DNA from: Dysgonamonadaceae bacterium
GTDB taxonomy: Bacteria > Bacteroidota > Bacteroidia > Bacteroidales > Azobacteroidaceae
Direction: 5' to 3'
Length of the DNA: 6,353 nt
Assembly (NCBI GenBank): GCA_031261015.1
Contig: JAISKG010000216.1
Span: forward strand, 1 to 6,353
Shown here: in pieces, positions 3,948-6,074 of the stretch
Numbering within the stretch: position 1 is the first letter of the stretch
Layout: every line of letters starts with the position of its first letter
Made by a program: the position numbers and the translations under genes
The notes under the pieces: model-generated
The model's input: the letters and a program-made list of their open reading frames with translations, nothing else
Told to the model about the DNA's origin: nothing
Database searches by the model: none

Positions 3948-6074
3948 ATGGAATACAATTTTAACGAAATTGAGAAGAAATGGCAGGCCTGCTGGAAAGA
4001 GCAGCGTACCTATCAAGTAACTGAAAATCAAGAGAAACCGAAATATTATGTATTGGATATGTTTCCCTATCCATCGGGCGCGGGTTTGCATGTCGGACAT
4101 CCGCTCGGTTACATTGCCTCCGATATTTTTGCGCGTTACAAACGACTGAAGGGATTCAATGTGCTGCATCCGATGGGTTACGACGCTTATGGGCTTCCGG
4201 CCGAGCAATATGCTATTCAAACCGGTCAGCATCCGGCAATTACAACCGATAAAAATATCAATCGCTACCGTGAACAATTGGATAAAATCGGTTTCAGTTT
4301 CGATTGGAACCGGGAAGTTCGCACCTGCGATCCGGATTATTACAAATGGACACAGTGGGCTTTTATTCAGATGTTTCACTCGTATTATTATTACGATGCC
4401 CAACAAGCGCGGCCAATTGCCGAATTGATCGAAGTATTTGAACAACAAGGAACTAAAGATTTGAATATCGCCTGCACCGAGCCACTCATTTTCACCGCCG
4501 GCGAATGGAAATCGAAATCCGAAAAAGAACAGCAGGAAATCCTGATGAATTACCGCATCGCTTATTTGGCCGATACAATGGTGAATTGGTGCGCCGATTT
4601 GGGAACCGTTTTAGCGAACGATGAAGTGAGCGAAGGCCTTTCAGTTAGAGGAGGTTATCCCGTCGAGCAACGGAAGATGCGACAGTGGAGTCTGCGCGTT
4701 TCCGCCTACGCCCAACGCCTTTTGGACGGCTTGGAAAAAATTGATTGGACGGAATCGTTGAAGGAAACGCAGCGGAATTGGATAGGGCGAAGCGAGGGGG
4801 CGGAGATGAGGTTTGACCTCTCCCCCGACCCCTCCCCACAGGGGAGGGGGGCGACTGACACGCACTTTTCTTGGTTTAAAAATACGACTGATGCAAAAAA
4901 TTGGAGGATGTTGATTTCAATTGCAAAGGAATTGCGTTTCAATCAAACTGAGGCGGAAGATACGCTTTGGCAAGTAATTCGTGCTAACAAGATAGGTTAT
5001 AAGATTAGACGACAGCATATTATTGATGGCTATATTGCTGATTTCGTCAATTTGGAGAAGCAAGTTATTATTGAGATAGATGGCGGGATTCATCTTTCAA
5101 AAGAGCAAAAGGAAAAAGATATACTCAGAACGCAAATTCTTAATGAATGTGGCTTTGATGTCATTCGTTTTACCAATGATGAAGTCTTATCAGACGCTTT
5201 TGTTGTTGCAGAAAAAATAAAAAACTATCTAAATTCCGTTCCGTCCAGAAGACATATCCCCCAAAATTGTGCTCCAACTACCCCCCTCCCCTGTGGGGAG
5301 GGGTCGGGGGAGAGGTCATTACTTATCTTTACCACTCGTCCCGATACGATTTTCGGTGTCACCTTTATGGTATTGGCGCCTGAATCAGAATATGTTTCAC
5401 AAGTTGTAACTTCAAAACAAAAAGCTGAAGTTGAAGTATATCTCGAAGCTGTAAAACGCCGGACCGAGCGCGAACGCATCGCCGACCGCAAAGTAACCGG
5501 CGTATTCTCGGGTTCTTACGCTATCAATCCCATGAACGGCGCAAAAATTCCCATCTGGATTTCCGACTATGTATTAGCTGGTTACGGCACAGGCGCGATT
5601 ATGGCTGTTCCCGCACACGACAGCCGCGACTACGCCTTTGCCAAGCATTTTAACTTGCCGATTATTCCGTTGATCGCAGGCGCCGATGTGAGCGAAGAAA
5701 GTTTCGATGCGAAAGATGGGATCATGATCAATTCGCCAATTGAAAATTCAAAATTGAAAATTGAAAATGGATTAGTTTTGAACGGTTTGACGGTGAAAGA
5801 GGCGATTAAAAAAGCGAAAGAATATATTGCTGAGAATAATCTCGGCAAAGTAAAAGTCAATTACCGTCTGCGCGACGCCATTTTCAGTCGCCAACGTTAT
5901 TGGGGCGAGCCGTTCCCGGTTTATTACAAGGACGGAATGCCTTATACGGTGGATGAGAAGGATTTACCGATTGAATTGCCGGAGGTGGATAAGTTTTTGC
6001 CGACGGAAACGGGGGAGCCGCCGCTGGGACGGGCGAAGGATTGGACCTACAAGGCAGAAGCAGTGAGAGGATGA
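3948..6074 (+). CDS. leuS: Leucyl-tRNA synthetase, N-terminal part, carrying an in-frame DUF559 nuclease insert and truncated at the 3' end
   Basis: LeuRS charges tRNA-Leu with leucine in the cytoplasm. Visible parts: Rossmann catalytic core with FPYPSGAGLHVGHPLGY, where HVGH (48-51) is the HIGH ATP-binding motif; NWIGRSEGAEMRF leading into the CP1 editing domain; then a foreign segment at about residues 290-457 (see separate entries). The editing domain resumes with the threonine-rich motif TTRPDT (462-467) and AVPAHDSRDY, whose D558 corresponds to the essential editing aspartate. The chain returns to the core with NYRLRDAIFSRQRYWGEPF (from 638). Homology to Bacteroidota LeuRS is continuous through TGEPPLGRAKDWTYK (to about 702), then seven unrelated residues and TGA. 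The KMSKS loop, the anticodon-binding domain and the C-terminal domain, roughly 380 residues, are absent from the window. Without the insert only about 540 residues of a normal 920-940 are present. As it stands this product could not aminoacylate, so the remainder may lie beyond an interrupting element, another copy may exist, or the contig is misjoined here. Confidence 0.85.
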   Translation: MEYNFNEIEKKWQACWKEQRTYQVTENQEKPKYYVLDMFPYPSGAGLHVGHPLGYIASDIFARYKRLKGFNVLHPMGYDAYGLPAEQYAIQTGQHPAITTDKNINRYREQLDKIGFSFDWNREVRTCDPDYYKWTQWAFIQMFHSYYYYDAQQARPIAELIEVFEQQGTKDLNIACTEPLIFTAGEWKSKSEKEQQEILMNYRIAYLADTMVNWCADLGTVLANDEVSEGLSVRGGYPVEQRKMRQWSLRVSAYAQRLLDGLEKIDWTESLKETQRNWIGRSEGAEMRFDLSPDPSPQGRGATDTHFSWFKNTTDAKNWRMLISIAKELRFNQTEAEDTLWQVIRANKIGYKIRRQHIIDGYIADFVNLEKQVIIEIDGGIHLSKEQKEKDILRTQILNECGFDVIRFTNDEVLSDAFVVAEKIKNYLNSVPSRRHIPQNCAPTTPLPCGEGSGERSLLIFTTRPDTIFGVTFMVLAPESEYVSQVVTSKQKAEVEVYLEAVKRRTERERIADRKVTGVFSGSYAINPMNGAKIPIWISDYVLAGYGTGAIMAVPAHDSRDYAFAKHFNLPIIPLIAGADVSEESFDAKDGIMINSPIENSKLKIENGLVLNGLTVKEAIKKAKEYIAENNLGKVKVNYRLRDAIFSRQRYWGEPFPVYYKDGMPYTVDEKDLPIELPEVDKFLPTETGEPPLGRAKDWTYKAEAVRG
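4814..4851. repeat. Left 38-bp inverted repeat of the nuclease cassette
   Basis: This is perfectly complementary to 5281-5318. Inside it, 4829-4837 (CCCCTCCCC) pairs with 4841-4849 around a three-base ACA loop, so each copy is itself a GC-rich hairpin like REP/palindromic elements. In the leuS frame it encodes DLSPDPSPQGRG. No TAA, TAG or TGA occurs in any frame on either strand, so insertion in any phase leaves a reading frame open. Confidence 0.93.
4908..5264 (+). CDS. DUF559 (Vsr-like) endonuclease domain within the leuS reading frame
   Basis: This is a nuclease domain of roughly 105-120 residues related to DUF559 and the very-short-patch repair endonuclease fold (PD-(D/E)xK-like). In LeuRS numbering: AKELRFNQTEAEDTLWQVIR (helix with E335 and E337, about 326-345), then RRQHIIDGYIADFV with D365, IIEIDGGIH with E376, D378 and H382, and ILNECGFDVIRFTNDEVL (397-414). 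D365 and the ExD pair are the expected metal-binding acids; the ExDGxxH block is the hallmark of the family. M321 (ATG at 4908) would give a normal family N-terminus, with GGAGG immediately upstream but too close for standard initiation. There is no stop of its own: the frame continues through the right repeat into LeuRS, so I mark an approximate domain end. DNA cleavage is inferred from the family; the target is unknown. Confidence 0.82.
5281..5318. repeat. Right 38-bp inverted repeat of the nuclease cassette
   Basis: This is the exact reverse complement of 4814-4851; the match ends at 5280 on the inner side and 5319 on the outer side. It contains the same nested hairpin (arms 5283-5291 and 5295-5303, loop TGT). 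In the leuS frame it is read as TPLPCGEGSGERS, a different peptide from the left copy because the orientation is reversed, and also without stops. The full pair could form a 38-bp stem with a 429-base loop in single-stranded DNA or mRNA. Confidence 0.93.
5739..5766 (+). repeat. Four tandem 7-bp repeats inside leuS
   Basis: Units ATTGAAA, ATTCAAA, ATTGAAA and ATTGAAA run head to tail without gaps, differing at one position. They encode IENSKLKIEN (residues 598-607) between MINSP and GLVLNGLTVKEA, a place where other Bacteroidota LeuRS have a short variable linker. The sequence looks like AT-rich intergenic repeat material captured in the coding region. Because 7 is not a multiple of 3, gain or loss of one unit would frameshift the gene. 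Confidence 0.85.

What the first reader, a model, noticed from the sequence alone, without database searches (positions are those of the whole stretch)
4814..5318. Nuclease cassette inserted in frame into the editing domain of leucyl-tRNA synthetase
A DUF559 endonuclease domain bounded by perfect 38-bp inverted repeats interrupts leuS without breaking the reading frame. LeuRS homology resumes immediately afterwards with the editing motif TTRPDT. There are no splicing features, so the predicted product is a synthetase with about 168 extra residues at a surface turn. A nuclease plus defined ends suggests a selfish, possibly homing, element that survives in an essential gene by staying translatable and placing itself in a tolerated loop. 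The mobility and homing parts are inference.
Basis: partly seen in the sequence, partly recalled or inferred. Interest (0 to 1): 0.93.

Follow-up and report, generated by a model that had tools for sequence, protein, structure and literature searches.

The report
Nuclease cassette living inside leucyl-tRNA synthetase
A predicted DNA-cutting domain framed by mirror-image DNA repeats sits in frame inside an essential bacterial gene that most examined relatives carry without it, and sister cassettes sit in frame inside many other housekeeping genes, so it is likely a selfish element that would spread by cutting empty copies and survives by being translated as part of its host protein.

Summary
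A 505-bp cassette (4814-5318) with perfect 38-bp inverted repeats encodes a DUF559 nuclease domain, in frame, in a loop at the start of the LeuRS editing domain.

It is not a one-off. In the window's family, 37 of 44 other genomes have the site without a nuclease, 0 with one, 7 undetermined. In an order-wide sample of 109, the site is interrupted in 7 besides the window and uninterrupted in 98. Related DUF559 domains were labelled in 19 host-protein families; in 17, host sequence was matched on both sides. Active-site-type residues are nearly invariant in 179 domains; dN/dS is 0.06-0.23 in 10 related pairs. In two same-site pairs the insert is younger than its host gene, once across bacterial families. 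The predicted fold is close to a Vsr-like protein and to the homing endonuclease I-Bth0305I. The ends are REP-like hairpins that also occur alone, some in frame in other genes.

Best reading: an unspliced, translated, homing-type element. DNA cleavage and homing are inferred. Ten full-text searches listed no paper describing it.

The window's leuS is also the N-terminal half of a split LeuRS.

The parts
3948..6074 (+). leuS open reading frame, 708 aa: N-terminal half of a split LeuRS carrying the nuclease insert
4814..5318 (+). whole inserted cassette, 505 bp, in frame
4814..4851 (+). left terminal inverted repeat, 38 bp, read in frame as DLSPDPSPQGRG
5281..5318 (+). right terminal inverted repeat, 38 bp, read in frame as PLPCGEGSGERS
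4829..4849 (.). hairpin inside the left arm (9-bp stem, 3-nt loop)
   Evidence: exact match to CCCCTCCCCNNNGGGGAGGGG; only two such places in G000
5283..5303 (.). hairpin inside the right arm
4824..4889 (+). predicted flexible linker encoded by the left arm and what follows (ORF residues 293-314, pLDDT under 50)
4917..5231 (+). DUF559 (PF04480) nuclease domain, ORF residues 324-428
   Evidence: fold
4956..5120 (+). stretch with active-site-type residues E337, D365, E376, D378, H382, D391 (ORF numbering), nearly invariant in 179 domains
5253..5312 (+). predicted flexible linker before and within the right arm (residues 436-455, pLDDT under 50)
5328..5348 (+). LeuRS editing motif FTTRPDT, where host homology resumes
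6082..6132 (.). separate perfect 15-bp inverted repeat (arms 6082-6096, 6118-6132) just past the leuS stop, at the point where LeuRS is split

Best explanation
The insert is a translated nuclease cassette with no sign of splicing that likely lives as a selfish homing-type element: its predicted Vsr-like DUF559 nuclease would cut alleles that lack the cassette, and repair from a filled allele would copy the cassette in. SHOWN: it is in frame, bounded by inverted repeats that hold REP-like hairpins, absent at that site from most relatives examined, recurrent at the same loop in distant lineages, and kin to cassettes in many other host genes; in related loci (not measurable on the window's own copy) the nuclease domain is under purifying selection. 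SHOWN IN TWO PAIRS: inserts at one site are younger than their host genes. INFERRED: the nuclease cuts DNA; it acts on empty sites or on the hairpins; repair copies the cassette. INFERRED: the hairpin ends, free of stops in three to six of six frames and read as Pro/Gly/Ser-rich linkers, let a copy that lands in a surface loop leave the host protein working. INFERRED: occasional off-target events seed new host genes, and deletion leaves short in-frame palindromes behind.
Against: No cleavage or homing was tested. No target-site duplication was seen by eye, and the filled loop has lost native residues, so the insertion is not clean. Insert and host identities mostly go together (r 0.745 over 74 LeuRS), so much of the history is inheritance or old. 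Of 12 informative pairs (out of 295 compared), 2 show a younger insert that survives correction for 295 tests, 2 lean that way without surviving it, 1 shows the reverse and survives (L012/L036), 7 do not differ. 27 of 58 loci do not keep inverted repeats above all shuffles. Nuclease-arm correlation is modest (r 0.32 over all pairs, 0 of 999 as high) and weak between different hosts (r 0.18, 39 of 999 as high). Four of the 10 dN/dS values rest on dS of 1.9-2.7. The own genome has no second copy. The insert tree is poorly resolved (14 of 139 inner branches starred).
Confidence: 0.6

Rival explanations
1. The hairpin ends are the real mobile unit (REP/MITE-like) moved by other machinery, and the DUF559 nuclease is a passenger or a decoy.
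For: Hairpins outnumber nucleases, up to 86 per genome for one variant, and occur alone in frame inside TsaD, AroC, GpmI, AlaRS and PurH. REPs are likely mobilised by Y1 transposases (PMC6006769, passages read), and Y1 genes are present in all 13 genomes tested.
Against: One hairpin pattern was seen in 1 of 30 Y1 loci (within about 1.5 kb), but beside 35 of 58 DUF559 loci within 400 bases: both sides in 15, one side in 20. The nuclease stays under purifying selection.
Confidence: 0.2
2. The nuclease domain was domesticated: the fused LeuRS gained a useful activity or defence role, and selection by the host keeps it.
For: Low dN/dS; broad co-inheritance with the host gene (r 0.745).
Against: Patchy presence, unrelated host proteins, divergent inserts at one site in similar hosts (L012/L036; window against L047/L053, host 0.78, insert 0.50).
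Confidence: 0.12
3. Ordinary transposition of a small element with terminal inverted repeats, without homing; only in-frame survivors are seen.
For: Inverted-repeat ends and many host genes.
Against: The same loop is hit again in distant lineages, and host labels cluster on the insert tree. Pfam and NCBIfam find no transposase in the cassette, and no target duplication was seen by eye.
Confidence: 0.15
4. Assembly chimera or pseudogene.
For: The contig is short (6353 bases) and begins with a low-complexity G/C run; leuS is short at its 3' end.
Against: The same fusion is found in independent records. The split at this point is shared by sister genomes. The leuS ORF is open across both junctions.
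Confidence: 0.02

Closest known systems
EDxHD / Vsr-like homing endonucleases (I-Bth0305I)
   Different: No intron or intein found around it; no long DNA-binding region of the kind described for I-Bth0305I (PMC3943268, passages read); stays in the frame of the host protein as far as sequence tells
Rickettsia palindromic elements (RPE)
   Same: Palindromic DNA inserted in frame into unrelated protein genes and translated (PMC10969869, passages read)
   Different: RPEs are about 150 bp in that review, and the word nuclease does not occur in its text; here a conserved nuclease lies between hairpin ends, in what look like Bacteroidota
REP / BIME / REPtron systems with RAYT (TnpA-REP)
   Same: Hairpin with a 5' tag, dispersed singly and as inverted pairs, flanking a nuclease-type gene; REPs inserted in frame in some tnpAREP genes (PMC6006769, passages read)
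   Different: The associated gene is DUF559, not an HUH/Y1 transposase; 29 of 30 Y1 loci lack the hairpin pattern tested; the whole unit sits inside host genes
Inteins
   Same: In-frame intervening sequence with a nuclease, in conserved genes
   Different: No splicing domain found

Membership tests
DUF559 family (PF04480) | Match above Pfam's curated cut-off | tested here: met
   109.5 bits against 20.6. YcjD as PD-(D/E)XK and related to Vsr: PMC1189080, passages read; that DUF559 is the YcjD family is recalled
EDxHD/Vsr-like homing endonuclease | Vsr/I-Bth0305I-like nuclease fold | tested here: met
EDxHD/Vsr-like homing endonuclease | E, D, H, D catalytic set | tested here: inconclusive
   E337, D365, D391 in 179 of 179 and H382 in 178 of 179 domains; equivalence to the EDxHD residues is recalled, not superposed
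EDxHD/Vsr-like homing endonuclease | Cuts the empty allele and is copied in by repair | not testable with these tools
   Only indirect: younger inserts at one site in two pairs
Mobile group I/II intron | Self-splicing RNA around the nuclease gene | tested here: not met
   No Rfam match in the window at gathering thresholds; frame open throughout
Intein | Hint/splicing domain in the insert | tested here: not met
   Pfam and NCBIfam list only nuclease families for the insert
REPtron / RAYT | REP-like hairpin with 5' tag, dispersed copies | tested here: met
   Tag plus hairpin units in G316 and G057, read by eye; one hairpin enriched over control; the tag differs from the GT[AG]G described in PMC6006769
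REPtron / RAYT | Y1 HUH transposase beside the hairpins | tested here: not met
   1 of 30 Y1 loci has the hairpin pattern; the cassette codes for DUF559
Rickettsia palindromic element | Palindrome in frame in unrelated protein genes | tested here: met
Rickettsia palindromic element | One of the described RPE sequence families | not tested
   RPE sequences were not compared; the cassette is 505 bp with a nuclease, against about 150 bp in PMC10969869
Insertion sequence | Target-site duplication | tested here: inconclusive
   None seen by eye in same-genus filled/empty pairs, but the loop residues are altered

The most novel reading that the evidence does not exclude
A third way for a homing element to live inside conserved genes, beside the self-splicing intron and the intein: a read-through homing element. 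It is never removed. It is translated as a nuclease domain on flexible linkers coded by its own hairpin ends, parks in surface loops of aminoacyl-tRNA synthetases and other housekeeping enzymes across a whole bacterial class, sheds short in-frame palindromes, and may help to break essential genes into pieces, as at the LeuRS split point.
Probability: 0.45. Interest if true: 0.96.

Novelty: new variant of a known kind. Interest (0 to 1): 0.88.

Why it matters
Homing endonucleases are thought to persist in conserved genes because they ride in elements that splice out (so PMC3943268, passages read). If this reading holds, an alternative exists: stay in the protein and be harmless. That would explain many nuclease-fused housekeeping proteins in databases, would give natural maps of loops that tolerate whole extra domains, and would supply a class of compact nucleases whose targets may be read from insertion sites. 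It also offers a testable route by which a synthetase gene becomes split.

Tried and rejected
Assembly chimera: rejected, since independent records P0002, P0003 and others hold the same fusion. Splicing element: no Rfam match and no splicing domain. Second copy in the own genome: none found. Y1/RAYT as owner of the hairpins: not supported. Plasmid match for the cassette: none. A scan of genome contigs with the insert alone gave only 2 loci, L041 and L042, both with stops in the frame on either side. The first inverted-repeat pass and the first empty-site pass that ran overlooked that loci on minus places are not turned round; redone. One weak second domain each in L048 and L055 (scores 15.7 and 13.3) was left out, and 37 near-copies with the same label (92% alike or more) were dropped for the tree, 179 to 142. 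L039 is labelled LeuRS although its ORF stops just after the right arm begins, so that leuS is broken there. Nuclease-arm co-evolution: modest to weak. The whole-ORF structure comparison listed only LeuRS rows among the 50 shown, so the insert was folded alone.

Counts by eye: the loops, the rows and the solo units were read by hand from the printed output. The host labels of P proteins come from the Pfam lists; those of some loci from best BLAST hits or from HMM scans. For RecJ (L034), TsaB (L021) and AcsA (L032, L040) the label was given by eye from likeness to the scanned member.

Full report
WHAT IS THERE. The window is the whole contig C192 (6353 bases) of a 2.0-Mb, 284-contig, 72% complete assembly. 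An ORF at 3948-6074 codes for 708 residues of LeuRS. At 4814-4851 and 5281-5318 lie exact 38-bp inverted repeats. Each holds a 9-bp-stem hairpin. Between them is a DUF559 domain (E 1e-31; closest solved relative by sequence 3hrl, E 4e-16). The frame never closes. LeuRS matches pause at profile position 234 and resume at 238.

EMPTY SITES. In the window's family 45 genomes were searched for leuS. Of the 44 others, 37 have a match that runs across the site without a nuclease-sized interruption, none is interrupted, and 7 could not be judged. Of 30 loci, one per genome, the loop could be read in 29 and holds no nuclease in any; it is typically like KVKDSDLEFTV, and host identity to the window is 72-87%. 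In a sample of 109 genomes of the order, 98 are uninterrupted, 7 are interrupted (G444, G396, G421, G506, G359, G466, G455) besides the window, and 3 could not be judged. Within single genera filled and empty alleles coexist: G396/G604, G680 and G743/G504, G211, G238 and G329/G008, G444/G639. The filled alleles lack native loop residues, and I saw no target duplication by eye.

THE SAME LOOP CATCHES OTHER REPEATS. Read by eye, several sister loops carry short in-frame palindromes or repeats: L097, L099, L100 and, in part, L087 (GTAGGGGC...GCCCCTAC type), L080, and the ITNYELR type in L073, L095, L098. L088 and L094 read like eroded copies of the cassette's own hairpin. This was not tested statistically.

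A FAMILY IN MANY GENES. A search with the insert alone, among proteins of about the fused ORF's length, found 330 proteins, the window's own included, 120 of them listed; these include LeuRS, MetH, RecG, methylmalonyl-CoA mutase/IcmF, TrpC-TrpF, UvrA, IleRS, MiaB-like, SpoIID-like and methylases. In genomes, 141 of 395 of the class and 115 of 393 of the order have a match at 1e-10, the window's genome counted in both; many of the weaker matches are free-standing. In the order search, 30 listed matches besides the window, in 28 of the 393 genomes, lie in frames of 300 aa or more (counted by hand; the list is cut at the weak end). Of 58 fetched loci, which are the best-scoring ones, 52 lie in a longer host frame and 6 stand alone. 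Nineteen host families were labelled. In 17, host sequence is matched on both sides of DUF559: LeuRS, IleRS, ValRS, IcmF, TsaB, CoA-transferase III, RecJ, WbcJ, DegT/PseC-like, AcsA, TrpC-TrpF (between its two domains), MetH, UvrA, RecG, MiaB, SpoIID/LytB and type ISP (positions; the far sides of RecJ, TsaB, CoA-transferase and WbcJ and the place in UvrA). In RecJ the profile breaks between 81 and 85, in TsaB between 100 and 104, in the WbcJ-type C-terminal domain between 58 and 59, so the nuclease sits inside a domain. For HsdM (L064) and an N6/N4 methylase (L056) only the upstream side matched. P0034 carries two DUF559 domains in one IleRS. LeuRS has a second site, before the PLE[LT].TMPG motif (L018, L020, L026, L038).

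ENDS. Inverted repeats above every one of 290 shuffles were found in 31 of 58 loci, so not in 27. The ends vary by lineage but read as LTPxPSPxERG, SPALSKGEG or PLPxGEGxGER-type peptides, and the left arm lacks stops in 3 to 6 of six frames in the 31 rows listed, of which 3 stand alone. In G316 and G057 the unit, read by eye, is a tag (about GCCTCACCCC) plus a hairpin (CCCCTCTCC, 3 nt, GGAGAGGGG), single or as inverted pairs 58 and 51 nt apart (L177, L178). One hairpin variant reaches 86 copies in a genome against 0-1 in the reversed-pattern control, and occurs in 27 of 36 genomes, which I picked and which are not a random sample. In G316, 5 of 20 sampled solo hairpins lie in frame inside genes whose HMM spans them: TsaD, AroC, GpmI, AlaRS, PurH; in G057, 0 of 20 were confirmed. 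L059 shows one hairpin pair inside another. The hairpin pattern was seen in 1 of 30 Y1 transposase loci.

IS THE NUCLEASE KEPT? The set has 179 domains: 120 listed proteins (the window's own among them), 58 loci, and the second copy in P0034; the two sources may overlap. E337, D365, E376, D391, R407 and N410 are invariant, D378 is kept in 177 and H382 in 178. Of 14 chosen pairs of loci, dN/dS of the nuclease was computable in 10 and ran from 0.06 to 0.23; 4 were saturated at synonymous sites, and 4 of the 10 have dS of 1.9-2.7, so those ratios are rough. No close DNA pair of the window's own copy was at hand.

DOES IT MOVE? On a tree of 142 domains the host label changes 29 times, against 72.5 in shuffles, with a minimum of 20. 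So lineages are faithful to a site but change host now and then; TrpC-TrpF inserts sit with LeuRS inserts in a starred group of 4. The tree is poorly resolved (14 of 139 inner branches starred). Over 74 LeuRS proteins, insert and host identities correlate (r 0.745), so inheritance is a large part. Against it, the window's LeuRS is 78% identical to L047 and L053, but the inserts are only 50% alike. Of 295 same-site pairs, 12 were unsaturated enough to read. RecJ in L030/L034 has insert pS 0.25 and host pS 0.68 (p 2.8e-9). LeuRS in L044/L048, from two bacterial families (G724 f156, G466 f150), has 0.38 and 0.69 (p 1.7e-5). L012/L036 shows the opposite, 0.76 and 0.38 (p 1.2e-8). L032/L040 and L059/L062 lean towards a younger insert but fail a correction for 295 tests; the other 7 do not differ. 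Sliding windows put the low-divergence stretch on the insert and, in L044/L048, a few tens of codons downstream.

HOW IT LIKELY WORKS. Shown: position, frame, ends, distribution, constraint in relatives, and younger inserts in two pairs. Inferred: the nuclease cuts alleles without the cassette, or hairpins, and repair from a filled allele copies it. Survival would follow from being translatable and from sitting in a surface loop on flexible linkers. The rival that hairpins move by other means, with the nuclease as a passenger, is the strongest.

WHAT IS KNOWN. Ten full-text searches listed no paper that by title or abstract start describes in-frame DUF559 cassettes; the 14 papers that name DUF559 were seen as a listing only. 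Passages were read in PMC10969869 (RPE), PMC1189080 (YcjD and Vsr), PMC3943268 (homing endonuclease families) and PMC6006769 (REP systems). The library lacks most subscription papers, so absence is weak evidence. Each ingredient has a precedent; the combination, a homing-type nuclease with hairpin ends that stays in the frame of essential genes, is what looks new.

SPLIT LEURS. The window's leuS ends after GEPPLGRAKDWTYKAEAVRG. In 16 of the 44 other family genomes the leuS match also ends at profile 470-481, and C-terminal halves lie elsewhere, for example about 12 kb away in G779 or about 460 bp away in G790, match to match. This is the same place as insertion site 2. The DNA behind the N-half differs between sister genomes and includes DUF1016/YhcG genes (L209 in part, L213), a Y1 transposase (L215) and a DUF3843 gene (L211); four further ORFs tested had no family. 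Whether insertions caused the split is open.

After the report was sent back once, I recounted: dN/dS computable in 10, not 9, of 14 pairs; the G779 distance is about 12, not 13, kb; and the both-sides claim for 17 families was tested further.

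Noticed in passing
window 6030-6132; L209-L220: leuS in part of the window's genus is split in two genes at the point where other lineages carry insertion site 2; the DNA behind the N-half differs by genome (DUF1016/YhcG, Y1 transposase, DUF3843 and others).
   Followed up: partly
window 6082-6132: Perfect 15-bp inverted repeat that begins 7 bases after the leuS stop; a similar GGGAC-type repeat stands at the same place in L210.
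   Followed up: partly
window 260-565: Short ORF matching part of a DDE transposase (PF13612, profile 25-75 of 155, E 1.5e-18), apparently a remnant.
   Followed up: no
window 1-70: The contig begins with a run of G and C of low complexity, perhaps an assembly or sequencing artefact.
   Followed up: no
P0034: An isoleucyl-tRNA synthetase with two DUF559 domains at two places.
   Followed up: no
L146, L147, L148, L151, L153: Solo hairpins without a nuclease lie in frame inside TsaD, AroC, GpmI, AlaRS and PurH of one genome, G316.
   Followed up: partly
L059; L049: Nested or tandem hairpin ends around one nuclease, as if elements had landed in older hairpins (read by eye).
   Followed up: no
L073, L087, L095, L097, L098, L099, L100: Other repeat types (GTAGGGGC palindromes, ITNYELR repeats) sit in the same LeuRS loop in sister genomes (read by eye).
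   Followed up: no
L039: A LeuRS insert whose frame stops just after the right arm begins, so the synthetase gene is broken in that assembly.
   Followed up: no
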